Shown one piece after another: positions 3,458 to 30,756 of a stretch of 31,262 nt of DNA; within the stretch, counting starts at the first letter, position 1, and the number at the start of each line of letters is the position of its first letter. Position numbers and translations under genes: made by a program. The stretch is from IMG/VR virus record IMGVR_UViG_3300046538_000288, positions 1 through 31,262 of that record. One strand, 5' to 3'. The notes below the pieces were generated by a model. The model was not told the DNA's origin. It worked only from the letters and a program-made list of their open reading frames with translations, and searched no databases. This stretch comes from a virus.

Positions 3458-3473
3458 GTGCAGACGTCTGCAC
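3458..3473. repeat. Dispersed palindrome copy 1 (GTGCAGACGTCTGCAC)
   Basis: A perfect 16-bp palindrome that starts at the base right after the TGA stop (3474-3476) of the - strand methylase gene. It is one of seven copies in the window. The lysozyme gene has a degenerate copy in the same place relative to its stop. Confidence 0.95.
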
Positions 3474-4262
3474 TCAGAACAGGCCAGCGGGCTCGCTTGC
3501 CTTGTCCCAACTGTAAATGATCAACTCCTGACGCTCTACCGCCCGACCGCCGCCACCCACCGTGTATGAAATTCCGGTTGCCTCCATTTGGAACCTGCCG
3601 AACACTCGCCGGATGTCCGGGTGGTCGTTCAGGCTAAGGATAGCCTTGCCTTTCAACCTGCCCATCAGATCGGCCATACGCTCATACTCCGACAGCGGGA
3701 AGTCCACACCATAGCCTTCGGTCTGCCAATACGGGGGATCGAGATAGAACAGCGTATGGGGCCTGTCATAGCGCTCCATGCATTTGTACCAATCCATGTT
3801 CTCGATATAGGCGCGCGCCAGGCGCAAATGCGCTGCCGACAAGTTCTCCTCGATGCGCAGCAGATTGACCTGCGGCGCCGTAGTGGCCGTGCCCCAGGTC
3901 TGCCCGTCAACCTTGCCGCCAAAAGCCTGCTGCTGAAGGTAAAAGAAGCGCGCGGCGCGCTGGATGTCGGTCAGCACGTGCGGAGGGGTCTCCTGCATCC
4001 ACTTGAACACATCGCGGCTGGAAAGCGCGTACTTGAACTGGCGGACGAATTCTTCCAAGTGATTCTTTACGACCCGATACAAGTTCACCAGTTCGCCGTT
4101 GATGTCGTTCACAACTTCGACTTCCGCCGGTGGCCGCATGAAAAACAGCGCGGCGCCACCCGCGAACACTTCGACGTAGCAGGTATGAAGTGGGAACTGA
4201 GGAATAAGACGGTCTGCGAGACGACGCTTGCCGCCGATCCAGGGAATGATTGGTGTTGCCAT
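3474..4262 (-). CDS. Dam-type DNA adenine-N6 methyltransferase
   Basis: A 262-residue orphan methyltransferase of the D12 class (Dam/MboI group), expected to methylate adenine in a short DNA site using S-adenosylmethionine. Visible motifs in order: PWIGGKR (residues 7-13), which helps bind the cofactor; the FxGxG-type motif I in EVFAGGAALFF (31-41); VNDINGELVNLYRVV (51-65); and the catalytic DPPY at 175-178 in FYLDPPYWQ. The length is normal for the family and all key motifs are intact. The ATG at 4262 has AAAGG upstream. No restriction partner is adjacent, so a role in protecting phage DNA or in regulation is likelier than restriction-modification. The recognition site (GATC in the Dam family) cannot be derived from sequence alone. 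It is convergent with the 3174-3395 gene. Confidence 0.92.
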   Translation of the reverse strand: MATPIIPWIGGKRRLADRLIPQFPLHTCYVEVFAGGAALFFMRPPAEVEVVNDINGELVNLYRVVKNHLEEFVRQFKYALSSRDVFKWMQETPPHVLTDIQRAARFFYLQQQAFGGKVDGQTWGTATTAPQVNLLRIEENLSAAHLRLARAYIENMDWYKCMERYDRPHTLFYLDPPYWQTEGYGVDFPLSEYERMADLMGRLKGKAILSLNDHPDIRRVFGRFQMEATGISYTVGGGGRAVERQELIIYSWDKASEPAGLF

Positions 4263-4586
4263 ATGTAAACCTTTTTGTTGTTAACTATGCTAGACTTCCG
4301 CCGCCTCCCGGGAGGTAGCAGAGCCTTGCTCGGTTCACTGGCCTTAACAGTGGATTGAGGTCGCGAGGTGTTGTTGACGCAGCACCCCGCGACGCTCTGT
4401 CTTATGAAGTCAATCAAACGCCGGGCCCGCTCGTCAACCGAGCAAAGCGCTATGCCAGTCAGCACACCCCAGTGCAGACGTCTGCACGCAATTGCCAGCG
4501 CCCTGCACAATTGGCAGCATCGATTTGCGAACATCGCCGTCTTTCGCTAAGCTGATCTCGTTATCTCTTCTACGTAGGAGGTGAAG
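4263..4586. other. Non-coding stretch between methylase and WxIRY copy 4
   Basis: No convincing gene was found in these 324 bp; the short open frames lack ribosome binding sites and recognisable content. It holds an imperfect inverted repeat, GTCGCGAGGTG (4360-4370) with CACCCCGCGAC (4383-4393), one mismatch and a 12-nt loop; a small one, CACTG/CAGTG, at 4336-4352; and palindrome copy 2 at 4472-4487. A weak promoter-like pair, TTGCGA then TAAGCT 17 bp on, lies before the gene at 4587. Confidence 0.55.
4472..4487. repeat. Dispersed palindrome copy 2 (GTGCAGACGTCTGCAC)
   Basis: A perfect 16-bp copy in the non-coding stretch upstream of WxIRY copy 4, about 100 bp before its start codon. Confidence 0.95.
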
Positions 4587-4808
4587 ATGCCCCTTTGGCG
4601 CATTCGATACGAAGACCGATACCAACGGCAACGGTCGTACTACCACGACTCTTTCCAGCGGCCTTCCAATAGTGAAGCTGAAGCAGTGGTCAAGAAAGAG
4701 TTAAATGGGTCCCGCAACGGCGGCAATCGGCAGATGTCGAATGCTCCGAGCTCAACCACCGCCGATGCCGAAGTAACGGTATTTGCAGTGGACGAAGTCA
4801 CCCAATAA
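4587..4808 (+). CDS. Small unknown protein, WxIRY family, copy 4
   Basis: A 73-residue protein of unknown function. The ATG at 4587 follows TAGGAGGTGAAG, an excellent ribosome binding site. The N-terminus MPLWRIRYEDRYQRQRSYYH is nearly identical to copy 2 for 11 residues, and the RPSNSEAEAVVKKEL segment carries the shared P-S-N-x-E-A helix start. The middle is low complexity (S, N, T, A), and a short hydrophobic strand VTVFAVDEV ends the protein, as in copies 1 and 2. It is separated from copies 1-3 by the GAF gene, the 3174 gene and the methylase, so the duplications have been split or independently acquired. It is convergent with the lysozyme gene. CACCCAA/TTGGGTG arms around 4801-4825 could form a weak hairpin at its end. 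Confidence 0.8.
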   Translation: MPLWRIRYEDRYQRQRSYYHDSFQRPSNSEAEAVVKKELNGSRNGGNRQMSNAPSSTTADAEVTVFAVDEVTQ

Positions 4809-4836
4809 GGATTGCTTTTGGGTGTCACTTAGAAAT

Positions 4837-4852
4837 GTGCAGACGTTTATAC
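4837..4852. repeat. Dispersed palindrome copy 3, half degenerate (GTGCAGACGTTTATAC)
   Basis: The left half is intact and the right half has decayed. It sits immediately after the lysozyme TGA (4853-4855), the same position as copy 1 relative to the methylase stop. On the - strand it reads GTATAAACGTCTGCAC. Confidence 0.8.
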
Positions 4853-5383
4853 TCATACTGAAAGATACAGGCTCCGTTCTGCGCGGCGCCGCTTGGTGAG
4901 TCCCTCCAACACGGCGCCACCAGCTTTGTTCCAGAGCAGGATCTTGTCGGCGGCGACGGAGTATTCGCGGCGCGCCGTACTGCGGCACACGGAGCTCAGA
5001 CGAAATGCCTTGACGCCGATGTTGTAAGCCAGGGACGTGCATGCAGCCTGTCTGGCAGGCGGTTCGAGAAATAGCTGTGGACATGCACGCAGCATGTTGA
5101 GAAGCACGCCGCCGGCACGCTGCTGCAGACTCACTTCAGCCTGCTCCAGCGTCCACCACATGCCTTCGCGAATACCTTGAGTTTCGCCGTAGCCAATCGT
5201 CCAGGGCGAGCCATCGAGTCCACGAAGCTCTCGCGGGATGTCGATTTTTCCCTGCATATAAGCTGACATTGTTCGCCTGCTCATCGCCTGGGCTAGCGGC
5301 GACGCAGGGTCAGGATATGCACGAAGCGACAGGCCCTCGCTCGGCCTGATCAGCCCGCATGCCAGGTCGAGTGCCGTGCTCAC
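4853..5383 (-). CDS. Phage lysozyme (T4-type, glycoside hydrolase family 24)
   Basis: A 176-residue endolysin that would cleave the peptidoglycan glycan chain at lysis. The catalytic Glu16 and Asp25 are spaced E-x8-D (SEGLSLRAYPD), as in the T4 family. The usual Thr, five residues further on in T4, is instead at Thr62 in PWTIGYGET, after an insertion of roughly 30 residues (about 28-60) that is also known in some phage lysozymes. A second helical half (ACTSLAYNIGVKAF) follows. No signal peptide or SAR segment is evident, so export probably depends on the holin. The start is GTG at 5383, and GTGA overlaps the holin TGA, indicating coupling. The stop is followed directly by the degenerate palindrome. 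Confidence 0.92.
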   Translation of the reverse strand: MSTALDLACGLIRPSEGLSLRAYPDPASPLAQAMSRRTMSAYMQGKIDIPRELRGLDGSPWTIGYGETQGIREGMWWTLEQAEVSLQQRAGGVLLNMLRACPQLFLEPPARQAACTSLAYNIGVKAFRLSSVCRSTARREYSVAADKILLWNKAGGAVLEGLTKRRRAERSLYLSV

Positions 5384-5853
5384 GATTTCTTATCCAGGAC
5401 GCGGCCAACGAACCAGAACGACAGGATGCCCGTCAGCAGCGCCCGATCCTCCTGATCATACACCTGCACCACGGCCTGCCACACGCCGCCGCCAGCGCCG
5501 ACCGCCACCGCGAACAACGCTACCTTTGCCAGGCCGTACAGCATCAGCATGTAATAAGTAGTTAGCGGCCGTACCAGGATGTTCAGGGCATCGATCCACC
5601 ACACGCCCGTGAGCTGCGCCTGGCCGACCAGTGCGCTCTTCTGCGCATCAAGCAATGCGAGCATTTGCGCTGCGTCCGTGGTCAGTTGGACCTCTTCTTT
5701 GCGCGCGGCCATACGGGCCTGCTCGAACTGCAGCTGGCGGTCCAGCATGGCCAGCTCGTGCGCGTTGTCCGTGCGCTTATTGAGCAGGCCCAGGAGCTCC
5801 GGCAGCAGTCGCATCAAGCCGCCGCCCAGGGCGGTCAGGAGGGAGAGAATCAT
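5380..5853 (-). CDS. Holin-like membrane protein (3TM type)
   Basis: A 157-residue protein with an N-terminal hydrophobic helix (MILSLLTALGGGLMRLLPEL), a long charged helical middle (about 25-75, rich in Q, A, E, R) and C-terminal membrane segments (about 85-125 and 138-150). This resembles the three-TM holin family also found in gene-transfer agents. Holins form the membrane lesion that releases the endolysin and sets lysis timing. It lies directly before the lysozyme, with a 4-nt stop/start overlap on each side. The ATG at 5853 with AAGGG upstream is chosen over an upstream in-frame start at 5928, which would run into the preceding gene. Confidence 0.8.
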   Translation of the reverse strand: MILSLLTALGGGLMRLLPELLGLLNKRTDNAHELAMLDRQLQFEQARMAARKEEVQLTTDAAQMLALLDAQKSALVGQAQLTGVWWIDALNILVRPLTTYYMLMLYGLAKVALFAVAVGAGGGVWQAVVQVYDQEDRALLTGILSFWFVGRVLDKKS

Positions 5854-6032
5854 TTGAATCCCTTCGTAGATCCGTAGGCAGCCAGCACAATCAGAGCGGC
5901 AACAAGCGCCTTCCACACCACAGCCCACACACCGCGACCGAAGTCGCCATAGAAGCGCTCAGTCATGCGCTCCTCCATTTGATCGACGATTGCTCGCACA
6001 TCGTCGTCCGTCAATTTGCGTTCCTCAGGCAT
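5850..6032 (-). CDS. Small one-TM protein of the lysis cassette
   Basis: A 60-residue protein with a charged N-terminus (MPEERKLTDDDVRAIVDQME) and one membrane helix (about 35-54, AVVWKALVAALIVLAAYG). The ATG at 6032 has AAAGGGG upstream and is favoured over the in-frame ATG at 6047. The stop overlaps the holin start as ATGA. It is the first gene of the lysis cassette after the terminator at 6050-6076. An antiholin or lysis-accessory role is plausible by position only; no family was recognised. Confidence 0.7.
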   Translation of the reverse strand: MPEERKLTDDDVRAIVDQMEERMTERFYGDFGRGVWAVVWKALVAALIVLAAYGSTKGFK

Positions 6033-6049
6033 TGCGCCCCTTTCCATCC

Positions 6050-6076
6050 AAAAAAGAAAAGCCGCCCGAAGGCGGC
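6050..6076 (-). terminator. Intrinsic terminator between tail genes and lysis cassette
   Basis: On the - strand GCCGCC, loop TTCG, GGCGGC is followed by TTTTCTTTTTT. It separates the tail operon from the lysis genes, so lysis expression would need read-through, an antiterminator or a local promoter. Confidence 0.88.
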
Positions 6077-6080
6077 ATCG

Positions 6081-6368
6081 CTATTTCCCCGCCGACTCCT
6101 CGCAATGCCTCGGGTCGAGCCAGTCCAATACTTTGCAGAGCACGCATCCCCGGCGCCGGCCAGCTGCGCGTGCCCGGTTGGCGCGACTGCTGATCGTTTC
6201 CGCGATCGAGCCGTTGGCCGCACGATTGCCGGCCTGGTCAATTTCGATGGCGATACTCCAGCCCTTTTCAGGATTGGTGAATACGCAAGTGAGCATGCGT
6301 AGCAGGATCACCAGCGCACCGAAGATGCACACCAGCCATACGCCGAGAAGGGCAGCGCGCTGCCTCAT
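6081..6368 (-). CDS. Small membrane-anchored hypothetical protein
   Basis: A 95-residue protein starting MRQRAALLGVWLVCIFGALV, with one N-terminal membrane helix (about 7-27), then a polar, Arg-rich region with several cysteines near the end. The ATG at 6368 overlaps the TGA of the preceding gene (ATGA); the longer upstream reading has no support. It lies between the fibre-assembly gene and the terminator before the lysis cassette. An i-spanin-like role fits the topology and position, but the expected long coiled coil is missing and no o-spanin lipobox gene was found nested in it, so the function is left open. Confidence 0.65.
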   Translation of the reverse strand: MRQRAALLGVWLVCIFGALVILLRMLTCVFTNPEKGWSIAIEIDQAGNRAANGSIAETISSRANRARAAGRRRGCVLCKVLDWLDPRHCEESAGK

Positions 6369-6808
6369 GCGCCCTCCCTTGCCGGCGGCGCCGGCAATAC
6401 CGCTATCACTTCCTGCGCCGTGGGGATGGCCCGCAGCCCGGATTTCACCTCGTCCAACATCGCGTAGCAGGCCGCCCATACCGAGGATCGCCAGGCCCGC
6501 AACGCCCGCCCTTCCGCCTGGAACTTCGGGACAGCAGGTTCTTCGGCGTAGGTGATCGCGTGAAGGATGGCCGATGCATCCGGCCTGGTCTTTTCTCCGT
6601 ATCCCCAGCTTCGCGCCACAGTATCGAGGTGCGATTGCACCAGCCCGTCATATTCCAGCACCAGGGCGTCGATCTGAGCCACACGATCCTGCTCGGTCTC
6701 CGGCACGCGCCGATACCGGCCAGGGAAATGCGTGAGCACAAAGTCCTGGTCAGCGACGATCGTTGTAAGGACGGCCCCCTGGCCGTCCAAGATTTCGTAC
6801 TTCGCCAT
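6365..6808 (-). CDS. Putative tail fibre assembly protein
   Basis: A 147-residue protein directly after the tail fibre gene. The N-terminal half (YEILDGQGAVLTTIVADQDF) is beta-rich, and the C-terminal half carries a helical region with RAWRSSVWAACYAMLDEVKSG. The pattern of an aromatic, Arg/Trp-rich helix after an A-E-A-x-A-L-x-x-W-R-x-x-V-W stretch is typical of phage proteins annotated as tail fibre assembly chaperones. The ATG at 6808 has AAGGAG upstream. The assignment rests mainly on position and this helix pattern. Confidence 0.6.
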   Translation of the reverse strand: MAKYEILDGQGAVLTTIVADQDFVLTHFPGRYRRVPETEQDRVAQIDALVLEYDGLVQSHLDTVARSWGYGEKTRPDASAILHAITYAEEPAVPKFQAEGRALRAWRSSVWAACYAMLDEVKSGLRAIPTAQEVIAVLPAPPAREGA

Positions 6809-6823
6809 TTGCTCGCTGCTCCT

Positions 6824-8812
6824 TCAAACGTATTCAATGATTGCCACGCCATCACCACCCTTGCCCGAGTAGTACACGTAGCTGATGCCAAGTGCCGCAC
6901 ACCCGCCACCACCGGCGCCCCACCCGCCATCACCGCCTTTGAATCCGCCGTTCCCTTCGGGGCCATTCCCTGCAAGCGCGCCACCGCCAGCAAGTCTTCC
7001 GCCAGCGCCCGCATTCGAGGGTTGCACGCCTTGTGGCGAAGCCGAACCGCCTCCGCCGCCACCGTCGCCTCCTGATTGCCCGTTGGACGAAGTGCTTCCC
7101 GCCCCACCGGCTCCCTTGAAGTTCAACGGCGGCAACGAGAATGTCACGGCGATGCCTGCAATCCCGGTGCTACCGCTTACTCCATAGCCACCTGGCCCTC
7201 CAGTTCCTCCGCCACCACCAGCCGCTGCGGCGTTATCGGTCCCCGCGCTGGCATCACCACCGTTACCTCCGATCCCAGCACCGGCGCTCGCCGCCTGCAC
7301 GTTGTTGGCCGTCGTATTGGTGATCCACGCCGTTCCGCCGTTGAATGGCGTCCCACCGAGCCAATTCACGGCGCCACCGCCTGACGCAATGAATGAAGTG
7401 ATTGCCCCGGTAGGACCGCAAATGCCGCCGTCACCACCGGTGTAATTCTGATCACCGCCGCTTGCCGTGCCGCCTGTCCCACCGGGCGTGTTTCCGGTCG
7501 CTGGCAAATTCTGAGTGGCGGTACGAGCGAACACGCCGCCTATGCCTCCGTTCGCGACCAGGCTCACGCCTGAGGTACTCATGGTGGAAGCATTGCCGTT
7601 ATTGCCGTTTGTGCCGCCGTCGACGGTGCGCCCGACCGATGCCCCACCTGTACCAATGATGAAAGTCAGCGCCTGACCGGCAGTGGCATTGAAGATCTTT
7701 CGCGTCAGGCCACCTGCGCCACCGCCCGTTGCCTTGCCTGAGTGCGATCCACTTTTGTAAACTGCGCCAGATGCGCCACCTCCGATCAACGTCACGCGGT
7801 GCGGACCAGCAACACGGGAATTCCAGGTCTGCGACGTCGTAACGATCGCCATGTTCGTAAACGGCGGCACAAAGGGATCGGTGACGACGGAGCGTCCATC
7901 GGCGCGCTTGTAGTAGTCGCAGATCCAGGCACCGCCACCGAGCGAGGTGACTTGCCCCGTATCGTTGACCGCTGTCGTGATGTTGGCCAGCCCGGGTAGC
8001 AGCAGGGTCGATACGTTGAACGTCAACTGCATGACGCCGGCAAACTTCAGCTTGCGACTCACCCCGGCCGGCGCAGTGCCAAACGACGAGATTGGTGCCG
8101 AACCAGTAAGGACCAGGTCATTGGAGGCAGCCGCGCCGATATCAACCGTTGCAGCCGATGGCAGCGACACCGTGCCATTCCAGTTGATCGCGCCGCTGGC
8201 CGTCCCCGCCAGCGCATTACTACCCGTGTCTCCCTTGGCGCCCTTGATTCCTGCAACGGTGATATTCCAGCTGTTGCAGGAACCGGCTCCGCCGAAGTCC
8301 GTCACAGCAAGGGTCAGGTTGGTATCAACATAGCTCTTCACCGTGCCAGCGACATAGCGCAGTGGGTTCGCCGTATCGACTGCGATCACGGGCGCATTCA
8401 AGGCAAGCTGCTTGTTAGACTGCGTCACGAACACCTTGTCGCCCGTGCCGACCACGACCGCAGACGCACTGGTAGCTGTCAACTGCGTGGTCTGGGCCAC
8501 GGCCGCAGCGGCTTGAGCGGCATCCCTTGCTGCCTGGGCCGCATCGCGTGCCGCTACCGACGAGTCGCGAGCGCCTTGGGACGCGTCGCGGGCGGCCTGG
8601 GCGTCCACCTTGGCCTGCGAAGCGACGTCCCGCGCGGCCTCGGCATTGCCCTTTGCTAGCGCCGCTGCTGCCGCATCGGCATCGACCGCCAATGCCACTG
8701 CGTTGACGGCTTGGCCCCACGGGTTGAGCGCGCCCATCCAGGTATCGGCCATTGGATCGAAGTTATCCGGATCTTCCGGCCGTGGGTGAGGTGGTAAATC
8801 TGGGATACTCAA
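6824..8812 (-). CDS. Tail fibre / receptor-binding protein with glycine-rich tip
   Basis: A 662-residue tail fibre protein. Domains in order: a short Pro-rich N-terminal attachment region; an Ala-rich coiled coil at about 40-105 (repeats of AARDAAQ type); a beta-rich shaft from about 110; a collagen-like GAKGDTG stretch near 190; a beta region to about 330; and a C-terminal part (about 340-660) extremely rich in glycine, with runs of G-G-x-G-G and G-G-G. Such glycine-rich ends occur in phage adhesins whose tip packs as polyglycine-II helices with variable loops contacting the receptor. The start is TTG at 8812 with GGAGG upstream, and it overlaps the previous stop (TTGA). It is the probable host-range determinant. 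Confidence 0.8.
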   Translation of the reverse strand: MSIPDLPPHPRPEDPDNFDPMADTWMGALNPWGQAVNAVALAVDADAAAAALAKGNAEAARDVASQAKVDAQAARDASQGARDSSVAARDAAQAARDAAQAAAAVAQTTQLTATSASAVVVGTGDKVFVTQSNKQLALNAPVIAVDTANPLRYVAGTVKSYVDTNLTLAVTDFGGAGSCNSWNITVAGIKGAKGDTGSNALAGTASGAINWNGTVSLPSAATVDIGAAASNDLVLTGSAPISSFGTAPAGVSRKLKFAGVMQLTFNVSTLLLPGLANITTAVNDTGQVTSLGGGAWICDYYKRADGRSVVTDPFVPPFTNMAIVTTSQTWNSRVAGPHRVTLIGGGASGAVYKSGSHSGKATGGGAGGLTRKIFNATAGQALTFIIGTGGASVGRTVDGGTNGNNGNASTMSTSGVSLVANGGIGGVFARTATQNLPATGNTPGGTGGTASGGDQNYTGGDGGICGPTGAITSFIASGGGAVNWLGGTPFNGGTAWITNTTANNVQAASAGAGIGGNGGDASAGTDNAAAAGGGGGTGGPGGYGVSGSTGIAGIAVTFSLPPLNFKGAGGAGSTSSNGQSGGDGGGGGGSASPQGVQPSNAGAGGRLAGGGALAGNGPEGNGGFKGGDGGWGAGGGGCAALGISYVYYSGKGGDGVAIIEYV

Positions 8813-9867
8813 ATGTCCTCCACTTCCAAATTGATGAAGCCTCGCGTGGCTTCACGTAAATTGATCGAAAACTGTTTCCACACACCCAGCAGGAACAGCG
8901 GTTCAAAGTAGCCGTCGGCGTAGTCGGTAATGCCGGCATAGATCGCCGGCACAGCGTTGAGCGCTTCCCGAGCCGCGAGCACGGTATCGGTTCGCGTCCT
9001 GGAGAACTCAATGACCATCTTTGCCTTCGGGATCGTGCGCTTCGGGTACAGCGTGGCATCGCCCCATTCGTTGCGGTCGATGATCGAGAAGTTCAGCTGA
9101 TCCGATTCCGGGTCATACTCAACGTCGCCCAGGTAAATACTGGTTCCGATGACGCACGCCCCGCATGCCCGCCGACCAGCACCAGGACGCGAGATCGTGA
9201 TCGTGATCTCCGCGTTGCGGTATGGCGGCAGGTCCGTGAGCAGGAGGTTGCGCACCTGGCGAAACGGTCCGTACATGAAGTCGTAAAGACCATGGCTTCG
9301 CCGGCGGATCATCTGCTTCGTCACCGCGTACACCTGGTTGCCGCCGACCTTCATCACGACCTTGACCGTGGCGCCCTCGATGCGCTTCAACGCGACCGAA
9401 TTCACGCGGCTCACGGGACGCAGCACGACCACGATGTCCGACTCCGAGACGGTCTTTCCGTTGCGCAGGTAGTGGAACATCGCATGCCGATTGGTCGGAC
9501 CGAGCGGCAACCATTTGGTCTTGTCCGACAGCGGCTGTCCGGTGTTGCCTGCTACCTGCGACTCGTAGCGCGTGTGCGTGGCCGGATCGATGACAATGGC
9601 ATCAAGCCCGTAGTTGGCCCCCGCGTTATAAGCGGTGTAGGCTTCCCCTACCTTCTTCCACCATGCAGGATTGAGGGCCGGATCTTTCCCGATGTTCCCC
9701 GCCTGCAGGGATTCATAGACCGCCAGAAGTGTGCCGACCGCACCCACCGCGGCTTGCGCCCCGGCGGCGTATGTAGCGCCGGCAGCGTATGCCGCCGGCG
9801 CCACCTCCACCACTGTGCTACTGCTCAGCACGGCATCAGTGATTGCCATGGGAGGTATGACCAGCAT
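8809..9867 (-). CDS. Tail-tip protein with a carbohydrate-binding-like module
   Basis: A 352-residue protein, the only gene between the tape measure and the fibre. Residues about 20-125 look like a chitin-binding-type or CBM5/12-like module (ALNPAWWKKVGEAYTAYNAG, TRYESQVAGNTGQPLSD, TKWLPLG). Residues 130-350 are beta-rich (NRHAMFHYLRNGKTVSESD, TISRPGAGRRACGACVIGTS) and could be the distal tail or baseplate-hub fold. The ATG at 9867 has GGAGG upstream and overlaps the tape measure stop as ATGA. By position it would cap the tail tube and hold the fibre. The usual lambda-like M/L/K/I/J set is absent. Confidence 0.65.
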   Translation of the reverse strand: MLVIPPMAITDAVLSSSTVVEVAPAAYAAGATYAAGAQAAVGAVGTLLAVYESLQAGNIGKDPALNPAWWKKVGEAYTAYNAGANYGLDAIVIDPATHTRYESQVAGNTGQPLSDKTKWLPLGPTNRHAMFHYLRNGKTVSESDIVVVLRPVSRVNSVALKRIEGATVKVVMKVGGNQVYAVTKQMIRRRSHGLYDFMYGPFRQVRNLLLTDLPPYRNAEITITISRPGAGRRACGACVIGTSIYLGDVEYDPESDQLNFSIIDRNEWGDATLYPKRTIPKAKMVIEFSRTRTDTVLAAREALNAVPAIYAGITDYADGYFEPLFLLGVWKQFSINLREATRGFINLEVEDI

Positions 9868-18003: not shown

Positions 18004-18359
18004 CAGACACCCATCCCGATGCGATGCGGACGGAGCAGGAAGCGCGCGCCGTTGGGCAGCTCCACGACACTGATGCCTACTACCGTGTCCTCACGGTTCA
18101 CATAGAAGTGCCCCAGCGTGAGCAGCATGGCCGCGCGGATCGTGTCGGTGACGACCAGCGGGGCGACGCCGGCAGTACCGGCCAGCACCGCCGCCTGCAG
18201 CTCGGCCTCGGTCTCGTACACCTGGCGATTTATGAAGTCGATGGCCGCGCCGACAGCGGCGCCGATATAAATCGGCAACACCAGCGACTCAGGGTCGTCA
18301 TCAGGCGCCGCATCGATGCGCAGATGCTGCCGGGCCAACTCAAGGCTGATCAGGCTCAT
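18003..18359 (-). CDS. Head-tail connector protein (HK97 gp6-like)
   Basis: A 118-residue, mainly helical protein. MSLISLELARQHLRIDAAPD, DPESLVLPIYIGAAVGAAID and FINRQVYE, then TDTIRAAMLLTLGHFYVNRE and a C-terminal loop with RFLLRPHRIGMGV are typical of gp6/gp15-like connectors that form a ring under the portal. The ATG at 18359 is chosen because homology-like sequence begins there; the frame is open far upstream but that part overlaps the preceding gene. Confidence 0.85.
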   Translation of the reverse strand: MSLISLELARQHLRIDAAPDDDPESLVLPIYIGAAVGAAIDFINRQVYETEAELQAAVLAGTAGVAPLVVTDTIRAAMLLTLGHFYVNREDTVVGISVVELPNGARFLLRPHRIGMGV

Positions 18360-18780
18360 CGCCCGTCCCTGCCGGAGCGGCCGGTGCATCAGCACCAGGT
18401 TCCGGTTCCGCGCCCGCCTGACCTTGCGCTTCTTGCTCCGGCGCAACGCCGGCCAGTTGGCCCGCGCCTGCGTCAGCCGCCACGCTGGCGTTGGCATGCT
18501 GGTCCGCAGGCGCTGACTGGGCGCGGCTGCGCGACGCGGCGTGTTTCTTCGGATTGCCGGCAGCGGGCTTTTGTGCAGACGTCTGCACAAACACCGGATC
18601 GGCGACGCCCGAATGCGATTCGACGACAGGCAGTGCAGACGTCTGCACATCGGCCAGAGGTCGCGCAATGCCCAAGCGCACCAGTTCTTCGCCACGCAGC
18701 TTGGGCACGTCGCGCAGGATCACGCCGCGCCGCACCCACTCCTTACCGTCGCGATGGGGTTTAATGATTTCGATATTCAT
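18340..18780 (-). CDS. Hypothetical head-region protein with two palindrome insertions
   Basis: A 146-residue protein of unknown function between the capsid and connector genes. The first ~42 residues (MNIEIIKPHRDGKEWVRRGV, RGEELVRLGIARPL) form a compact, conserved-looking unit. From about 43 on the protein is low complexity, rich in Ala, Gln, Pro and Gly. Two copies of the 16-bp palindrome fall in this part in the same frame and both encode VQTSA (ADVQTSALP and FVQTSAQKP). The tail looks disordered, which may explain why insertions are tolerated. The ATG at 18780 has no good Shine-Dalgarno; a 9-bp hairpin (18787-18809) lies 6 bases upstream. It overlaps the connector start by 20 bp. Confidence 0.7.
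   Translation of the reverse strand: MNIEIIKPHRDGKEWVRRGVILRDVPKLRGEELVRLGIARPLADVQTSALPVVESHSGVADPVFVQTSAQKPAAGNPKKHAASRSRAQSAPADQHANASVAADAGAGQLAGVAPEQEAQGQAGAEPEPGADAPAAPAGTGDEPDQP
18573..18588. repeat. Dispersed palindrome copy 4 (GTGCAGACGTCTGCAC)
   Basis: A perfect copy inside the 18340-18780 gene, encoding VQTSA on the - strand. It is 60 bp from copy 5 in the same gene. Confidence 0.95.
18633..18648. repeat. Dispersed palindrome copy 5 (GTGCAGACGTCTGCAC)
   Basis: A perfect copy inside the 18340-18780 gene, again encoding VQTSA in the - strand frame. Confidence 0.95.
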
Positions 18781-20023: not shown

Positions 20024-20033
20024 GTACATGTCC

Positions 20034-24346: not shown

Positions 24347-24709
24347 CTACCCCTTTGGCCGCGCTCGACGCCGACCGCGAATTGACTCGCCGCGACTCTT
24401 CTCTTCGTGACAGGCATCGCATAGAGCCTGCTCATTCGTCTCATCGTCCGGACCACCCTCAGCCAAGGGGATGATGTGATCGCGTTGTGTGGCCTCAGAT
24501 ATACGGCCCTGCCTCTTGCACTCAACACACAAGGGTTCACGGGCGAACAGCGCCGCCCGCATGGCCTGTAACTTCCGACCGGTGATCCTCTTTGTTGGCG
24601 TGCCCCTGGTCCATGCGATACGCGGATGCTTTGCGCATCGGCCGCTACCGTCACGAACCAGCACGCGGCACGCGGTGAAGCTGCACGGCCTTGGAGCAGA
24701 TACTGGCAT
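24347..24709 (-). CDS. HNH endonuclease associated with DNA packaging
   Basis: A 120-residue HNH nuclease. The C-terminal half has the full motif set: zinc pair C61-x2-C64 (CVECKRQG), the catalytic His78 in QRDHIIPLAEGG, Asn92 in ETNEQALC, and C97-x2-C100-H101 (CDACHEEK). The N-terminal part has an extra cysteine-rich segment (CSFTACRVLVRDGSGRCAKH) that may bind zinc. Such proteins next to terminase genes are required for terminase cleavage of cos in HK97-like phages. The ATG at 24709 has AGGAGG upstream, which favours it over a TTG inside the palindrome at 24742. Confidence 0.92.
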   Translation of the reverse strand: MPVSAPRPCSFTACRVLVRDGSGRCAKHPRIAWTRGTPTKRITGRKLQAMRAALFAREPLCVECKRQGRISEATQRDHIIPLAEGGPDDETNEQALCDACHEEKSRGESIRGRRRARPKG

Positions 24710-24726
24710 CGCGACCTCCTGTGCTT

Positions 24727-24742
24727 GTGCAGACGTCTGCAA
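24727..24742. repeat. Dispersed palindrome copy 6 (GTGCAGACGTCTGCAA)
   Basis: A 14-bp core palindrome (24728-24741) with one mismatch at the outer pair. It lies between the terminator's T run and the HNH ribosome binding site, so here it is in the 5' leader of the late operon. Confidence 0.92.
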
Positions 24743-25243: not shown

Positions 25244-25307
25244 TTTAAAATCTCCCCTCCTTAATTTGGGAAGACCATATTACTGGAAAGAGGTAGCTGC
25301 CGAAACG

Positions 25308-25330: not shown

Positions 25331-25380
25331 CTTCTACTTGCTGCGCTTTAGACGAACATGCGCCTCCGCTGGGGAGACGC

Positions 25381-25944
25381 CTATTCGGCTAAAGGCACGG
25401 GACACCCCGGCAAACAAGTTGTAGATCGAATGGTAGCGGCGTCACCCAACTTGTGCAAGATGCTCTTCAAATTATTTTCAGCCTTCGCAATCAACAGCGG
25501 CACATGCTGTCCGCGCACACCACGCAGGAAGCGACGAATCTGGCAGGGTGACCATCGTTGAATGTACAGCGCTTTCAACGCCTGGCGCTCGTTGTAATCG
25601 CCCATCATGCGCCACGCTACCTCGACCAACCAGCCGTCAAGCATGTCTGCCGTCACCAGCGGGCTAAGCGGCTTGATCTTCTCGTCCAGCAGATCGCTGG
25701 CCGGCGCGCGCTCAGCCACCCGCAGCGCCACATATGCCTTTGCCCAGCCCGCGCAGTACTGCGAGGCACCACCCGCCGTGACCTTACCGCTCACGACCTT
25801 ACGCCAGTTCTCCATACGGCCCAAGAACTCCTGTTGCGCCTTCGGCACTGGCCTGCTTTCCACCCTACGCGGTTCAGCGACAGGCCGTTCGCGCGCCACC
25901 TGCTCCTCAAACACTGCACCATCAACTTCGAATACTGCGCCCAT
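25381..25944 (-). CDS. Candidate late-gene regulator at the end of the early operon
   Basis: A 187-residue protein with a Pro/Arg-rich N-terminal part and a helical C-terminal part: GGASQYCAGWAKAYVALRVA, GWLVEVAWRMMGDYNERQAL, ALYIQRWSPCQIRRFLRGVR. The end resembles a sigma-region-4-like helix-turn-helix (N-E-R-Q-A-L-K-A-L-Y-I-Q-R-W-S-P-C-Q-I-R-R-F-L). The last early gene, just before terminators and then the late genes, is the classic place for a Q- or RinA/ArpU-type late activator. The role is inferred from position plus the helix pattern. The ATG at 25944 has AAGGA upstream; an in-frame TTG at 25965 is less likely. Confidence 0.6.
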   Translation of the reverse strand: MGAVFEVDGAVFEEQVARERPVAEPRRVESRPVPKAQQEFLGRMENWRKVVSGKVTAGGASQYCAGWAKAYVALRVAERAPASDLLDEKIKPLSPLVTADMLDGWLVEVAWRMMGDYNERQALKALYIQRWSPCQIRRFLRGVRGQHVPLLIAKAENNLKSILHKLGDAATIRSTTCLPGCPVPLAE

Positions 25945-26624
25945 TCGTTTTTCCTTTTCGCCCAATTGCTTCCCTACCCTACGACCGAATACCCAGTGCT
26001 TCCTCCGCCATCCTCAACGAGGCAAAGGTGACCGGTTCACCTCGCTCGCTCTTTGCCAGCACTTCCCGAGCCCAATCGGTCTGCTGGCTAATAGTCCCCT
26101 GCGGAACTCGCTTGATCCGAAGCTGCGCAAGCAACTCCCTGGCCTTCTCCGGCGGCATCAGCGTCTTCCCCGGCGCCGCCAATGCTTTGCGCTTTTCCGG
26201 TACAGGTTGCAGCTCTGGATTCTCAACGCTTTCCCGCAGCGCCTCGACCCAGCGTGGTCGCAGCACGTCATAGCCTTGATGCGTCATCGCAAATGACCCG
26301 ATCTTTACCCAAGCCCAGTAGATTGCTGGATGCGACCAGACGTCCGCCTCGCCCGCCACTTCAAGCTCGCGCTTCGAACCCTGCACCAGCGCTTCGTGGA
26401 ATGCCAAGTGCGGATCGAGGTTCGGCCTGCACAGCTTGATGAACTCCGGCAGCGTAGGCGGCCAGTCCTTCGAATCCAGCATGCGGTAGCCCGTCGCCAG
26501 CTCAGCCCTGGATAACGCGCCCAGCTTTCCCGCCCAGTACTGTTTCATTTCTTCCAGATCCACACCTGCCCACATGTCGGCAAACCGGGAACCGTATGCC
26601 CATGACATACGCTTGAACAGCGAC

Positions 26625-27734
<1,110 letters not shown>

Positions 27735-27745
27735 AGTTAAGTCCG

Positions 27746-28147
27746 TTAGGTCCGAAAGGGGATACGCTCCCCTCCCACCAGGGAGGGATGGGTGCGGTAG
27801 TCGAGAGCACCCGGTCGGTACACGATGGCGCTCTTGCTACTGCGTTGGCGCGGGCTGAAAGGAGGGGTAGTGCGTGGCTGGACGATTGGCGCCGGCTCGA
27901 TGTACTTGCCCGAGGCCTTGCGACCGAGCGTATCGAAGCCATCGCGCGTGATCACATAGCCGTCGCGCTGTACTACCAACCCGGCTGCCAGCAGCACCGA
28001 GGAAACGTTTATATGGAATTTCTCGGACGTGACATCGTGACCGAATGCCTCCTGCCAAGCCGCCGCCGTGGCCGCGCCGCCGATCTTGTGCAATGTCAGC
28101 AATCCAACGAACGCAAGCGTGCTGCTCGAAATCTTAGCGATGGTCAT
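27746..28147 (-). CDS. Hypothetical early protein, possibly winged-helix
   Basis: A 133-residue protein, unrecognised, in the early operon between the YmfL-like regulator and the replication protein. Residues 1-75 (MTIAKISSSTLAFVGLLTLH, SVLLAAGLVVQRDGYVITRD) have helix-helix-hairpin character, with V-V-Q-R-D-G-Y-V-I-T-x-D-G resembling a winged-helix wing. The rest is polar, Pro/Arg-rich and probably disordered. The ATG at 28147 overlaps the preceding stop as ATGA. Confidence 0.7.
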   Translation of the reverse strand: MTIAKISSSTLAFVGLLTLHKIGGAATAAAWQEAFGHDVTSEKFHINVSSVLLAAGLVVQRDGYVITRDGFDTLGRKASGKYIEPAPIVQPRTTPPFSPRQRSSKSAIVYRPGALDYRTHPSLVGGERIPFRT

Positions 28148-28623
28148 GCGGCCTCCTTCACAGGCAACAGGACTTCGCGCTTGCGCGGGCAGTACACGTG
28201 GAACATCAATGCCTGCATGCGAGCCGCCTTCCTGTGCAACTCGGCGCCCAGGGCCTCAAGCTCTGCCCGCTCGCGCTCATCGATCTTGCCGTCTTTTGAG
28301 CACTCCTCGAAGCGGTCATAGATGCGGCCCAGCTCGCGGTAGGTTTCACCAATGGCAGCGTGGATCGAATCATTCTCAATCTCGCCTGCATCAGGGAGTC
28401 GGACGAACGTCCCGCCGCTGGCGGTAGCAATCGCCTCGGCGAAGCAGGTAGTGCCGCTGAACTCCTGCAATGCGAGCGCATCACTCGTGGAGAGGGACTG
28501 CCCCTTCAGTTCATAAACGCGGTTGCGCAGCGAGTTCTCAGTCATTCCGAGCTGCACCGCCGCAACCACCCATTTACCTTGAATGGAATTCACCATTCGC
28601 GTCACCGCTGTTCGCACATCCAT
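28144..28623 (-). CDS. YmfL-like phage regulatory protein (CII position)
   Basis: A 159-residue protein related to the e14-prophage YmfL family. It starts MDVRTAVTRMVNSIQGKWVV, with a helix-turn-helix at about 18-42 (AAVQLGMTENSLRNRVYELK), then SLSTSDALALQEFSGTTCFA and EAIATASGGTFVRLPDAGEI, characteristic of YmfL. A helical C-terminal half follows (DERERAELEALGAELHRKAA). It sits second in the early leftward operon after the Cro-like gene, the position of CII, so a transcriptional role in the lysis-lysogeny choice is likely. The ATG at 28623 has AAGGATGG upstream. Confidence 0.82.
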   Translation of the reverse strand: MDVRTAVTRMVNSIQGKWVVAAVQLGMTENSLRNRVYELKGQSLSTSDALALQEFSGTTCFAEAIATASGGTFVRLPDAGEIENDSIHAAIGETYRELGRIYDRFEECSKDGKIDERERAELEALGAELHRKAARMQALMFHVYCPRKREVLLPVKEAA

Positions 28624-28694
28624 ACACCCATCCTTAAAATTATGGTTTTACCAACCGCCAATGTTCCGTAAACTTCTCTTTGTACCGCCCACAT

Positions 28695-28738
28695 CCGCCC
28701 TTCGGCTTCGGCGGGATAGGTAAAAAACTGTCCCGCCG
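28695..28738 (-). promoter_or_regulatory. Competing hairpins in the leader between Cro-like and YmfL-like genes
   Basis: CGGCGGGA (28709-28716) pairs with TCCCGCCG (28731-28738) around a 14-nt loop. An alternative CCGCC (28695-28699) pairs with GGCGG (28710-28714), so the two structures exclude each other. There is no T run after the stem on the - strand. It may act as an attenuator or Rho-type terminator region, like tR1 in lambda, but this is speculative. Confidence 0.4.
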
Positions 28739-28744
28739 ATCCCA

Positions 28745-29047
28745 CTACTTGGACTCCTTGTCGCGGCGGTCTACCGGGGATACCACCGCGCCACGAGGAA
28801 CCGTGTCAAAGATGTTGGATGTAGATGGCGGTTGCCTACCACGTCGCCCCTCTTCCACCGACGCATCCGTTGCACGGCGGTGCTGAAATTGAAAGAGACT
28901 AGGATTCGCCAGCTTTACCTTGGCCGGGATGCCCCGAGTGAGCCAGTTCTGCACTCGCTGGACACCTCCGTGCTTGTCGTAGCCTAGAAGCTCGGCGACT
29001 TTTGTCGGGCCGCCCAGTCGAGCAATTATTTCTTTGTCGGATTCCAT
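28745..29047 (-). CDS. Cro/YdaS-like repressor
   Basis: A 100-residue DNA-binding protein divergent from the CI-like gene. The N-terminal half is a YdaS/Cro-type helix-turn-helix: MESDKEIIARLGGPTKVAEL, LGYDKHGGVQRVQNWLTRGI, then PAKVKLANPSLFQ. The C-terminal part is Arg-rich and polar. It would repress the lysogeny promoter at the shared operators. The ATG at 29047 with GGAAG upstream is chosen; an in-frame GTG at 29059 is an alternative. Confidence 0.85.
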   Translation of the reverse strand: MESDKEIIARLGGPTKVAELLGYDKHGGVQRVQNWLTRGIPAKVKLANPSLFQFQHRRATDASVEEGRRGRQPPSTSNIFDTVPRGAVVSPVDRRDKESK

Positions 29048-29076
29048 ATCGGCTTCCACTGAAGTTGGATTGCGAC

Positions 29077-29105
29077 ATTAAACACGGTGTTTATACACAA
29101 GTCAA
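29077..29105 (-). promoter_or_regulatory. Leftward early promoter
   Basis: On the - strand TTGACT (29100-29105), a 17-bp spacer, and TTTAAT (29077-29082): a strong sigma70 match 30 bp before the Cro-like start codon. The operator at 29080-29092 overlaps the -10 region. The 29-bp segment is identical at 26 positions to the rightward promoter at 30505-30533. Confidence 0.85.
29080..29092. promoter_or_regulatory. Operator AAACACGGTGTTT
   Basis: A 13-bp palindrome with a central base, half-site AAACAC. The same site, with a different central base, overlaps the -10 of the rightward promoter. It is the likely binding site of the CI-like and/or Cro-like protein. Weaker look-alikes are at 29114-29126 and 29128-29140. 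Confidence 0.8.
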
Positions 29106-29145
29106 TGATGATTAAACGTTATGTGTAACACATTTTGTTTAGTAC

Positions 29146-29160
29146 GGGAGACAATCTCCC
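29146..29160 (+). promoter_or_regulatory. Hairpin over the repressor ribosome binding site
   Basis: GGGAGA (29146-29151) pairs with TCTCCC (29155-29160) around a 3-base loop. GGGAG is the only Shine-Dalgarno-like sequence before the ATG at 29163, so the hairpin would hide it and limit repressor translation. Confidence 0.5.
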
Positions 29161-29162
29161 CT

Positions 29163-29855
29163 ATGCATATTCAGATGACACGGTTATACGAAGCCGCGAA
29201 AACACTGCACGGGATCGAGGGCCAATCGGACGTGGCGCGAGCGTTGAACGCTTCCCCACAAACCCTGAACAACTGGGAAGCTCGAGGCATTTCCAGACCC
29301 GGCCTACTCAAAGCTCAGATGGTTTTCGGGTGCTCTGCCACGTGGCTAGACACCGGCGCCGGTCCTATGAGCGCAGCGGAGTCCCCGACTCTCTCGAATG
29401 CACTTTCTGTAGTGATTGCTGAGAACGGCGATCCCAATTTCTACCAAATCCCAAAAGTGAAACTGCAACTGCGTGCCGGCATGACTGGGTTCCAAACAGT
29501 CCCGGAGATTTACGATGGGAGCACTTTGAGCGTCTCCAAGAACTGGGTGGATCGCAACGGATACTCGCCGTCCAAACTCATAGCTGTGTCCATAAAGGGC
29601 GACAGCATGGAGCCCAATCTGTATGAAGGTGACATGGTGATCGTCAATACCGCCGACACCAAGATGACTGATGGCTCTGTCTATGCATTCAACTATGAAG
29701 GCGAAGCCGTGATTAAACGACTATCGCGGGATGCCGGACAGTGGTGGCTAACGTCAGACAACGCTGACCAGGTGAAGTACCGCAGGAAGAGCTGCCGCAG
29801 CGGAGAATGCATAATCGTCGGCCGGGTTGTCCGACGTGAGACCGATCGAATTTAA
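29163..29855 (+). CDS. CI-like repressor with LexA-type self-cleavage domain
   Basis: A 230-residue prophage repressor. The N-terminal helix-turn-helix spans about 8-45 (QSDVARALNASPQTLNNWEA). The C-terminal S24 peptidase domain has the nucleophile Ser148 in IKGDSMEPNLYEGD and the general base Lys185 in EAVIKRL. The Ser-Lys gap of 37 residues equals that of LexA. Ala105-Gly106 in LQLRAGMTG is the likely cleavage site, so RecA-dependent induction is expected. The ATG at 29163 is preferred; an ATG at 29175 in the same frame is possible. It is divergent from the Cro-like gene and should act on the AAACAC-type operators. Confidence 0.93.
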   Translation: MHIQMTRLYEAAKTLHGIEGQSDVARALNASPQTLNNWEARGISRPGLLKAQMVFGCSATWLDTGAGPMSAAESPTLSNALSVVIAENGDPNFYQIPKVKLQLRAGMTGFQTVPEIYDGSTLSVSKNWVDRNGYSPSKLIAVSIKGDSMEPNLYEGDMVIVNTADTKMTDGSVYAFNYEGEAVIKRLSRDAGQWWLTSDNADQVKYRRKSCRSGECIIVGRVVRRETDRI

Positions 29856-29885
29856 GAATCCGAAACACAACCCACCAGATATTGT

Positions 29886-30410
29886 ATGGCCCTAACGAAC
29901 TGCAAAGAATGCAAAAAGGAAGTATCGACGTCCGCCAACCTCTGTCCACATTGCGGCGTTAAGAACCCAGGCACTAAAGCCAAAGATGTGCTGGTCGGCG
30001 CAATCTTCATTGTGGGCATTTTCGCTCTTGTGGCGAAATGCAGCTCGACCAGCGCTCCGGATTCGAAGACTAACGCCCAGCCAGAAATTTCGACGGCTCA
30101 GCGCGAAGCTCAATGCAAAGAGGATCTGCAGTGCTGGAGCCAAAAGGCGATGATTGAAGTCGGCGGTCGCTGTCAAAGAAAGATCGAAAAGTTCGCGAAG
30201 TACAGCGTTCGCTGGACTGACAAGACACTGGAATCCAAGTTCAGCCGCGTTGCCTGGCTGGACAAAGAGAAAGGCACGTTACGCCTGATTGGCGACAAGG
30301 TCGAATTTCAAAACGGCTTCGGCGCATATCGCCCACACACGTATTCTTGCGCGGTCGATCCCGCCACCAAAGCAGTTCTTGACGTGGCCGTACAACCGGG
30401 TCGCCTATAG
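29886..30410 (+). CDS. Zinc-ribbon membrane protein downstream of the repressor
   Basis: A 174-residue protein. C6-x2-C9 and C20-x2-C23 (NCKECK, CPHCG) form an N-terminal zinc ribbon. A membrane helix follows at about 34-50 (VLVGAIFIVGIFALVA). The rest (about 55-174) is probably on the other side of the membrane, contains four cysteines and is positively charged in the middle. It lies 30 bp after the repressor gene and before a terminator, so it is likely expressed in the lysogen, the usual place for superinfection exclusion or lysogenic conversion genes. There is no clear Shine-Dalgarno before the ATG. The function is unknown. Confidence 0.75.
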   Translation: MALTNCKECKKEVSTSANLCPHCGVKNPGTKAKDVLVGAIFIVGIFALVAKCSSTSAPDSKTNAQPEISTAQREAQCKEDLQCWSQKAMIEVGGRCQRKIEKFAKYSVRWTDKTLESKFSRVAWLDKEKGTLRLIGDKVEFQNGFGAYRPHTYSCAVDPATKAVLDVAVQPGRL

Positions 30411-30434
30411 CCGCCCCTCTTCCCCTCCCCCACC

Positions 30435-30461
30435 AATCCCCGCAATGCGGGGATTTTTTTT
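30435..30461 (+). terminator. Intrinsic terminator after the repressor operon
   Basis: AATCCCCGC, loop AAT, GCGGGGATT, then TTTTTT. It ends the lysogenic transcript (repressor plus zinc-ribbon gene) just before the rightward promoter. Confidence 0.92.
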
Positions 30462-30493
30462 GCCCTACAGAGGCGCCATCAGACGTCGCCATT

Positions 30494-30506
30494 AAACAAT
30501 ATGTTT
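30494..30506. promoter_or_regulatory. Operator-like palindrome AAACAATATGTTT
   Basis: A 13-bp palindrome related to AAACACnGTGTTT. Its end overlaps the -35 box of the rightward promoter. It is centred 24 bp upstream of the stronger site, close to two helical turns plus a little. Confidence 0.65.
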
Positions 30507-30533
30507 GACTTTTGTTTAAACACAGTGTTTAAT
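30505..30533 (+). promoter_or_regulatory. Rightward early promoter
   Basis: TTGACT (30505-30510), a 17-bp spacer, TTTAAT (30528-30533), 35 bp before the ATG at 30568. It is near-identical to the leftward promoter and is overlapped by two operator-like sites. It would drive a repressor-controlled operon running off the right end of the window. Confidence 0.85.
30518..30530. promoter_or_regulatory. Operator AAACACAGTGTTT
   Basis: Both half-sites are identical to those of the operator at 29080-29092. It overlaps the -10 of the rightward promoter. Confidence 0.8.
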
Positions 30534-30567
30534 TCGCTACCTGTGATGTTTACTCGATGGAGCGAAA

Positions 30568-30756
30568 ATGCGTCAGAAAGATATCTCCACGCCTCAACCT
30601 GACGAGGCAACCTCGCCAATCACTACCCGTGCATTTGCCGCCGACAAGTTCGCGAACTTGAAAGGCCACGAGTACATTCGCGCTCGCAACTTAGGCAAGC
30701 TGGAGCGACCAGTGCAGACGTCTGCACTCGACGCCGCGAACGGAGGCAAGCTGTGA
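30568..30756 (+). CDS. Small hypothetical protein with an in-frame palindrome
   Basis: A 62-residue polar protein, unrecognised (MRQKDISTPQPDEATSPITT, FANLKGHEYIRARNLGKLER). Near its end the palindrome at 30712-30727 encodes VQTSA (PVQTSALDAANGGKL). It is the first gene behind the rightward promoter. ATG at 30568 with GGAG upstream; the stop overlaps the next start as GTGA. Confidence 0.75.
   Translation: MRQKDISTPQPDEATSPITTRAFAADKFANLKGHEYIRARNLGKLERPVQTSALDAANGGKL
30712..30727. repeat. Dispersed palindrome copy 7 (GTGCAGACGTCTGCAC)
   Basis: A perfect copy inside the 30568-30756 gene, again in the VQTSA frame, close to the C-terminus. Confidence 0.95.

What the first reader, a model, noticed from the sequence alone, without database searches (positions are those of the whole stretch)
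3458..30727. A 16-bp perfect palindrome, GTGCAGACGTCTGCAC, dispersed through the prophage and inserted in-frame into proteins
Seven copies were seen: 3458, 4472, 4837 (half degenerate), 18573, 18633, 24727 (outer pair mismatched) and 30712. Under uniform base composition a given 14-mer is expected about 0.0001 times in 31 kb, yet the 14-bp core occurs six times exactly. The flanks are unrelated, so the unit is only about 16 bp. Three copies lie inside genes, all in the one frame that gives VQTSA, in linker or C-terminal low-complexity parts. Two lie directly against stop codons and one in the leader of the late operon. The element is open in all six frames. Possibilities: a very small mobile palindrome (compare Rickettsia palindromic elements), a highly iterated palindrome like cyanobacterial HIP1, or a binding site for a host chromosome or regulatory protein. 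Which applies is not known.
Basis: seen in the sequence. Interest (0 to 1): 0.85.

Follow-up and report, generated by a model that had tools for sequence, protein, structure and literature searches.

The report
Docking sites for phage ParB clamp
A 16-letter DNA palindrome repeated through this bacterial virus is very probably the landing site of a ParB-type DNA clamp that the virus family encodes itself, with no sign of the usual ParA partner, so it is a virus-borne relative of the parS sites bacteria use to sort their chromosomes rather than a tiny jumping element.

Summary
In detail: five exact copies of GTGCAGACGTCTGCAC, one with a single mismatch and one decayed copy; 0.16 matches expected by chance. 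It is not iterated over host genomes: 265 of 294 same-family genomes have none. It tracks a large orphan ParB gene (ParB_N + HTH_ParB). Of 50 virus records picked by terminase, all 8 with this ParB have 2-6 sites; of the 42 without, one has sites, and it is cut at the same gene boundary as the window. 164 ParB loci hold 375 sites, control patterns 4-38. One site lies inside parB, where synonymous letters are held (third-position T in 58 of 59 and 51 of 61 genes). The window ends 17 bases before a relative's parB start, and five of its seven sites have counterparts there. No ParA gene was found in 42 records. Best reading: a parS-like nucleation site of a phage-encoded, ParA-less ParB clamp. 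Binding is inferred, not shown; the role (long-range control or genome organisation) is open. The VQTSA in-frame copies look incidental.

The parts
3458..3473 (.). exact 16-bp site, directly against the stop codon of the D12-class adenine methyltransferase gene (3474-4262 -); no counterpart was seen in the relative
4472..4487 (.). exact 16-bp site in the stretch upstream of the methyltransferase gene (inside a mechanically listed frame 4109-4534 -); no counterpart was seen in the relative
4837..4852 (.). decayed site (3 mismatches) against the stop codon of the lysozyme gene (4853-5383 -); the aligned position in relative IMGVR_UViG_3300046616_000611 is an exact 16-mer
18573..18588 (.). exact site, VQTSA frame, in a 146-aa protein (18340-18780 -) encoded after the major capsid gene; 16 of 16 in the relative
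18633..18648 (.). exact site, VQTSA frame, same protein; 16 of 16 in the relative
24727..24742 (.). site with one outer mismatch, after a T-rich terminator-like stretch and before the HNH endonuclease gene if that gene starts at the ATG near 24709 (the mechanically listed ORF 24347-24742 starts at a TTG in the site); the aligned site in the relative is exact
30712..30727 (.). exact site in a 62-aa open frame upstream of the place where parB lies in relatives; the aligned site in the relative has 15 of 16
30568..30756 (+). small open frame (62 aa) that carries the 30712 site
30753..31262 (+). 169-aa open frame; its stop codon ends the record; in the relative the ParB-like gene starts 17 bases on from the aligned end

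Best explanation
The palindrome is the cognate, parS-like recognition site of a large ParB-family protein encoded by this group of temperate phages and related elements. The window is cut just before its own copy of that gene. Shown by computation: sites and gene go together; sites keep their places and their DNA letters (also against synonymous drift inside parB); the protein has ParB CTPase motifs and a ParB/Noc/KorB DNA-binding fold; no ParA gene or canonical ParA-binding motif was found. Inferred: a ParB dimer binds the 16-bp site, closes round DNA with CTP and slides, so that the sites (typically five or six over a 31-40 kb genome) load clamps on much of it. What the clamps do is the least certain step: I favour a KorB/Noc-like use (long-range control or organisation of the prophage genome, with autoregulation through the site in parB and the site upstream of it) over classical ParA-driven partition.
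For: Association: 40 of 45 palindrome-bearing virus records of 27 kb or more carry the gene. 79 of 80 and 69 of 78 loci found by ParB protein patterns carry at least one site. Terminase-picked control: 8 of 8 records with the gene have 2-6 sites, 1 of 42 without has any, and that record ends at the same gene boundary as the window. Unsupervised clustering: a palindrome family of 3 or more members in 38 of 85 loci (33 of them this site family, 5 other palindromes), 0 of 170 simulations. DNA-level constraint in parB: T before GCA in 58 of 59 and 51 of 61 genes, where T3 averages 13% and 10%; GCA in 56 of 59 and 49 of 61, where it is 22% and 15% of Ala codons. The outer base, not used to pick sites, is G in 87-91%. 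Site class (G or C at position 6) inside parB correlates with class elsewhere in the locus, r 0.47 over 109 loci, 0 of 10,000 shuffles. Protein: PF02195 + PF17762 in 5 of 5 scanned; model matches ParB 6t1f (Z 17.2, rmsd 4.4, 186 aligned), Noc 7nfu (16.9, 4.8, 200) and KorB 8qa9 (15.2, 4.6, 200); GERRxRA in 135 and ENxxR in 163 of 164. ParA (PF13614): 0 of 42 records; motif 0 of 164.
Against: No binding experiment exists. 12 of 164 ParB loci have no site and 5 of 45 palindrome records have no match to the ParB alignment. In 4 of 16 bacterial genomes with two or more sites on a contig (among the places printed) no such ParB lies on that contig; one is a jumbo phage with 12 copies and only a distant ParB-like protein. 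The protein column with the highest mutual information with site class goes the same way in on average 2.1 of 7 independent pairs (range 1-3; none the other way; not significant), so protein-DNA co-variation is suggestive only. 21 of 80 genes of the first scan lack the ADxC motif, so the in-gene site is not universal.
Confidence: 0.82

Rival explanations
1. Classical partition: the phage ParB and its sites work with the host's ParA to segregate an extrachromosomal form of the prophage.
For: The same phage type occurs as a 36.9-kb circular plasmid record in Comamonas odontotermitis with the gene and hybrid sites; one genome holds the prophage both in the chromosome and on a separate contig. The phage-plasmids P1 and N15 partition themselves (PMC7156551, passages).
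Against: No ParA family gene (PF13614) in 42 records, no canonical ParA-binding motif in 164 proteins; the window and the three named phage-like elements carry integrases; a Myxococcus plasmid carries a relative of this ParB besides a separate ParA/ParB pair.
Confidence: 0.15
2. The site directs DNA modification, replication or packaging: ParB marks sites on phage DNA for a nuclease, methyltransferase or terminase.
For: A site lies before the HNH gene next to the terminase block (window 24727; L579, L582, L583) and one beside a methyltransferase gene. A role in directing DNA modification during packaging was suggested for phage ParB-like proteins of ParB-terminase loci (PMC6536676, passages).
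Against: In the three named elements the gene lies between repressor and integrase, not beside terminase, and the sites are spread over the genome.
Confidence: 0.15
3. A short mobile palindrome that inserts in frame into genes.
For: Several in-frame copies; flanks of different copies look unrelated.
Against: Positions conserved between relatives; synonymous constraint in parB; absent from 41 of 42 terminase-picked records without the gene; no spread in host genomes. No clean empty site was looked for between near-identical genes.
Confidence: 0.02
4. A site for another, unidentified phage or host DNA-binding protein that merely travels with the ParB gene.
For: Phage genes travel in blocks (recalled); a jumbo phage has 12 copies without this ParB family.
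Against: The association also holds for elements of several phyla, plasmids included, the site sits inside parB itself, and its architecture (16 bp, two-fold, ACGT centre) fits a ParB/Noc dimer. The small phage ParB of the KS9 type has no such association (1 site in 38 loci), so phage ParB genes in general do not bring the site.
Confidence: 0.1

Closest known systems
Chromosomal ParB-parS and Noc-NBS
   Same: ParB_N plus HTH_ParB, CTP-binding boxes, 16-bp two-fold palindrome; the C-class phage site GTGCACACGTGTGCAC shares the CACGTG centre with parS (parS sequence recalled). Model aligns with ParB 6t1f and Noc 7nfu.
   Different: Outer site bases differ, no ParA gene or motif found, protein about twice as long, with a conserved cysteine cluster after the HTH and a long C-terminal part, sites spread over a phage genome.
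KorB with its OB operators on plasmid RK2
   Same: Plasmid-borne ParB-type CTPase clamp that represses genes from operators near to or far from promoters (PMC11790492, passages); model aligns with KorB 8qa9, Z 15.2.
   Different: Different partner protein (KorA) and 22% identity over the aligned part; the operator differs (recalled); no KorA counterpart was looked for.
Phage N15 and P1 partition sites
   Same: Phage-encoded ParB-type protein; N15 centromere repeats are dispersed over the genome (recalled).
   Different: Both have a ParA and live as plasmids (PMC7156551, passages); sites and proteins differ (recalled).
Orphan ParB proteins of mobile elements (PNAS 2025 survey)
   Same: ParB-CTPase proteins outside parAB operons, frequent on prophages and plasmids (PMC12704722, passages).
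   Different: The passages seen name no DNA site for the phage orphans; 'palindrom' occurs 0 times in its main text.
HIP1 of cyanobacteria; Rickettsia palindromic elements
   Same: Repeated palindromes, some in reading frames (recalled).
   Different: Not iterated over host chromosomes; no sign of insertion.

Membership tests
ParB protein family (ParB/Noc/KorB type) | ParB_N and HTH_ParB domains | tested here: met
   Both over the curated cut-offs in 5 of 5 proteins scanned; fold match to ParB, Noc and KorB. The window's own gene lies outside the record.
ParB protein family (ParB/Noc/KorB type) | CTP-binding boxes GERRxR and ENxxR | tested here: met
   GERRxRA in 135 of 164, ENxxR in 163 of 164; CTP binding itself not tested
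ParABS partition system | ParA ATPase partner | tested here: not met
   PF13614 in 0 of 42 records, found in 14 of 14 control genomes; canonical ParA-binding motif 0 of 164
ParABS partition system | cognate palindromic site near or in parB | tested here: met
   site inside parB at about +780 nt and sites upstream; binding inferred, not shown
ParABS partition system | stabilises inheritance of the replicon | not testable with these tools
   needs an experiment
KorB regulators | KorA-type clamp-locking partner | not tested
   no search for a KorA counterpart was made
HIP1-like iterated palindrome | high counts over the host genome | tested here: not met
   265 of 294 genomes have none, largest count 6
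Rickettsia palindromic element type mobile repeat | clean presence or absence of the unit between orthologues | tested here: inconclusive
   In the five places compared both genomes carry the site, with cores better conserved than flanks; no orthologue pair with an empty site was found or sought; the post-capsid site is read in different frames

The most novel reading that the evidence does not exclude
Temperate phages and some plasmids of several phyla carry a ParA-less ParB-parS system in which dispersed nucleation sites (typically five or six in a phage, ten in one plasmid) load sliding CTPase clamps over the whole element. It would act as a genome-wide organiser or silencer, with one site embedded, under codon-level selection, in the clamp gene itself.
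Probability: 0.5. Interest if true: 0.85.

Novelty: new variant of a known kind. Interest (0 to 1): 0.72.

Why it matters
Orphan ParB proteins are frequent on prophages and plasmids (PMC12704722, passages), and I found no reported DNA target for the phage ones. Here a target falls out of the sequence: a 16-bp site with two letter classes, fixed addresses in the genome and a copy inside the gene. It gives an immediate handle (defined DNA, defined protein, natural site variants) on what ParB clamps do without ParA, and tests whether phages use KorB-like long-range control. It also suggests that trimming of virus records can cut off the very gene that explains a repeat.

Tried and rejected
HIP1-type host iteration: rejected by counts. 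Mobile element: disfavoured by positional and codon conservation. VQTSA as a protein motif: disfavoured, since other frames are used. All phage ParBs: the KS9-type family (phrog_1033) has 1 site in 38 loci, so the single copy near the Pigmentiphaga gene is probably chance. Tree-based proof of co-variation at VarioGold residue 191: inconclusive; by simple accuracy columns 212 and 213 did better. No analysis of promoters near the sites was made. Literature: no paper of the held library has the 14- or 16-mer. Of the other searches I saw listings, and passages of seven papers; nothing I saw describes these sites. Most subscription papers, and bioRxiv preprints, are not held.

Results against the reading: 12 of 164 loci without a site (L320, L332, L333, L369, L370, L371, L381, L390, L393, L398, L407, L408). 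Five terminase-picked records with weaker matches to the ParB alignment (E 9e-29 to 5e-8) have no site. G032, G034, G037 and G006 have site clusters without this ParB on the contig; in G006 a 348-aa ParB_N protein of another type lies 31 kb away. In the unsupervised search 5 of the 38 larger families are other palindromes.

Own slips: one search used a wrong frame; read only part of the loci (L102 onward; 152 distinct flanks); one search failed; one search used too strict a pattern; one search is the full version.

Full report
CHECK. The seven copies are real and far beyond chance. The window is a 31,262-base virus record of a temperate siphophage-like element: tyrosine integrase, D12-class methyltransferase, lysozyme, tail and head genes, large terminase, HNH endonuclease, CII-like regulator and S24-type repressor.

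WHERE ELSE IT OCCURS. Whole-genome counts for 43 such genomes are 1-12, with the reversed control 0 in all; where several places are printed they mostly cluster on one stretch of the genome. In 294 genomes of the family of Duganella aquatilis (G012; the sample includes some of those 43), 29 have any copy, at most 6. So it belongs to mobile elements, not to the host chromosome at large.

THE PARTNER GENE. One copy recurs inside an open frame of about 530-840 aa, as codons for SADVCT. Five of five such proteins scanned have ParB_N and HTH_ParB domains; two compared with PDB sequences match ParB, Spo0J, Noc and KorB. An AlphaFold2 model of one (613 aa, mean pLDDT 83, pTM 0.63) matches C. crescentus ParB 6t1f (Z 17.2, rmsd 4.4, 186 residues), Noc 7nfu (16.9, 4.8, 200) and KorB 8qa9 (15.2, 4.6, 200) over residues of about 27-244; the rest of the protein was not searched alone. 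A cysteine cluster after the HTH is present in 164 of 164, GERRxRA in 135 and ENxxR in 163; no canonical ParA-binding motif in any; median length 694 aa. ParA-family ATPases (PF13614): 0 of 42 records.

ASSOCIATION. Of 45 palindrome-bearing virus records, 40 carry the gene. In the reverse direction, two protein-pattern scans that ignore the palindrome (each keeps the best 80; the first partly used the peptide [SG]ADVCT[DN][PV], with all synonymous codons allowed) gave 80 and 78 further loci; 79 and 69 have at least one site TGCA.ACGT.TGCA with at most one mismatch, 68 and 53 have two or more. With 6 named records this is 375 sites in 164 loci; five control templates gave 4-38 sites and at most 3 loci with two or more. 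A control independent of both is 50 virus records picked by their terminase: 8 carry the gene strongly (E below 1e-100) and all 8 have 2-6 sites; of the other 42 only one has sites, and that record stops at the end of the gene that precedes parB, as the window does (my reading of the two ends). Five records with weaker matches to the alignment (E 9e-29 to 5e-8) have none. In bacterial genomes, 12 of 16 with two or more sites on one contig (among the places printed) have the long ParB on that contig.

DNA-LEVEL SELECTION. In 59 of 80 parB genes of the first scan the motif (A or P)-D-x-C is present; the residue before it varies (S, G, D, N, A, R, Q, F) yet its third base is T in 58; Ala is GCA in 56; the base after the palindrome is free. 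In the second scan, 61 of 78 genes have A-D there, with T in 51 and GCA in 49. Average T3 is 13% and 10%, average GCA share 22% and 15%. The outer G of the 16-mer, not used to choose sites, is conserved at 87-91%.

UNSUPERVISED DISCOVERY AND SITE CLASSES. Clustering near-palindromes without a template gave a top family of three or more in 38 of 85 loci and in 0 of 170 simulated sequences; in 33 of the 38 the family is TGCAGACGTCTGCA, TGCACACGTGTGCA or a near variant or hybrid, in 5 it is another palindrome. By the base at position 6 the loci are G-class 76, C-class 19, mixed 29, undetermined 40. Acidovorax phage Aval uses the C class, Variovorax phage VarioGold the G class with variants, a Comamonas phage-like plasmid hybrids. 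A Myxococcus plasmid with a relative of this ParB has ten copies of GCAGACGTCTGC in 44 kb (100 of 100 simulations have none), nine of them outside annotated genes, in a gene table that is incomplete. Class inside parB correlates with class outside (r 0.47, 109 loci, 0 of 10,000 shuffles). The protein column with the highest mutual information is VarioGold residue 191 (mostly Ala in the G class, Phe or Tyr in the C class), next to the residue that aligns with G201 of C. crescentus ParB (my reading), a known specificity residue (PMC7383237, passages); the phylogenetic test is not significant. The CACGTG centre of the C class equals that of canonical parS (parS recalled).

THE WINDOW. Its right end aligns 17 bases before the parB start of relative IMGVR_UViG_3300046616_000611. 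Five window sites have counterparts there, with cores 13-16 of 16 and flank identity 0.42-0.76; the copies at 3458 and 4472 have none among the aligned blocks. Spacing between successive sites (about 13.8, 6 and 6-7 kb) recurs in related records such as G130 and G070. By my reading of the open frames, the post-capsid site lies just before the start of the next gene in four relatives and in the C-terminal part of a protein (VQTSA) in the window and one relative; the site before the HNH gene recurs in three.

MECHANISM. Shown: co-occurrence, selection on DNA letters, ParB fold and motifs, no detectable ParA. Inferred: binding, CTP-gated sliding, autoregulation. Open: purpose. In the window the sites lie in open frames, against stop codons or before a gene, which suits loading of clamps over the genome at least as well as promoter control; promoters were not analysed. 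KorB shows that such a clamp can silence genes at a distance (PMC11790492, passages). A packaging or modification role for phage ParB-like proteins has been proposed (PMC6536676, passages).

COMPARISON AND NOVELTY. It works like a parS/NBS/OB-type site. The protein belongs to the ParB family; the system fails the ParA criterion of ParABS. A 2025 survey describes orphan ParBs on mobile elements (PMC12704722, passages); searches for the site or for such a system in the held library showed me no description. In the passages seen, the VarioGold paper only lists its ParB gene (PMC9658991). I therefore call it a new variant of a known kind.

Noticed in passing
G034:C445 (loci L521-L529): A 183-kb contig with jumbo-phage-like genes in a Phycisphaerae bin carries 12 exact copies of the same 16-mer, 8 of them outside open frames of 200 aa or more, but no ParB_N match; it has a 301-aa distant ParB-like protein (phrog_1033, E 6e-20) at L529:3699-4604(-). 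Whether that protein uses the same site is unknown.
   Followed up: partly
G032:C75 (L530), G037:C39 (L533), G006:C11: Clusters of the site (5 in 10 kb; 2 in 7 kb; 2 in 2 kb) without a ParB of this family on the contig.
   Followed up: partly
G011:C1:594423-616258 and G011:C6:14164-35999: Noviherbaspirillum denitrificans TSA40 seems to hold the same prophage in the chromosome and on a separate 37-kb contig: identical site spacing and ParB score. It may be an episome, an induced phage or an assembly duplicate.
   Followed up: no
window 31262; L516 end: Two virus records (the window and IMGVR_UViG_2643221645_000001) end at the stop codon of the gene before parB, perhaps because trimming took parB for a host gene.
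   Followed up: yes
L332 (Myxococcus stipitatus plasmid pYRE): Carries a separate ParA/ParB pair and, 8 kb away, a relative of the large solo ParB, with no copy of the site within one mismatch.
   Followed up: no
window 30512-30534: An AT-rich inverted-repeat-like stretch (TTGTTTAAACACAGTGTTTAATT) lies between a terminator-like hairpin and the 62-aa open frame upstream of parB: a possible repressor operator.
   Followed up: no
L195, L225, L244: In these loci (L195 is a Ruminococcus MAG) the 16-mer sits in similar flanks and is read as CADVCT in an open frame of L225; it looks like a different protein.
   Followed up: no
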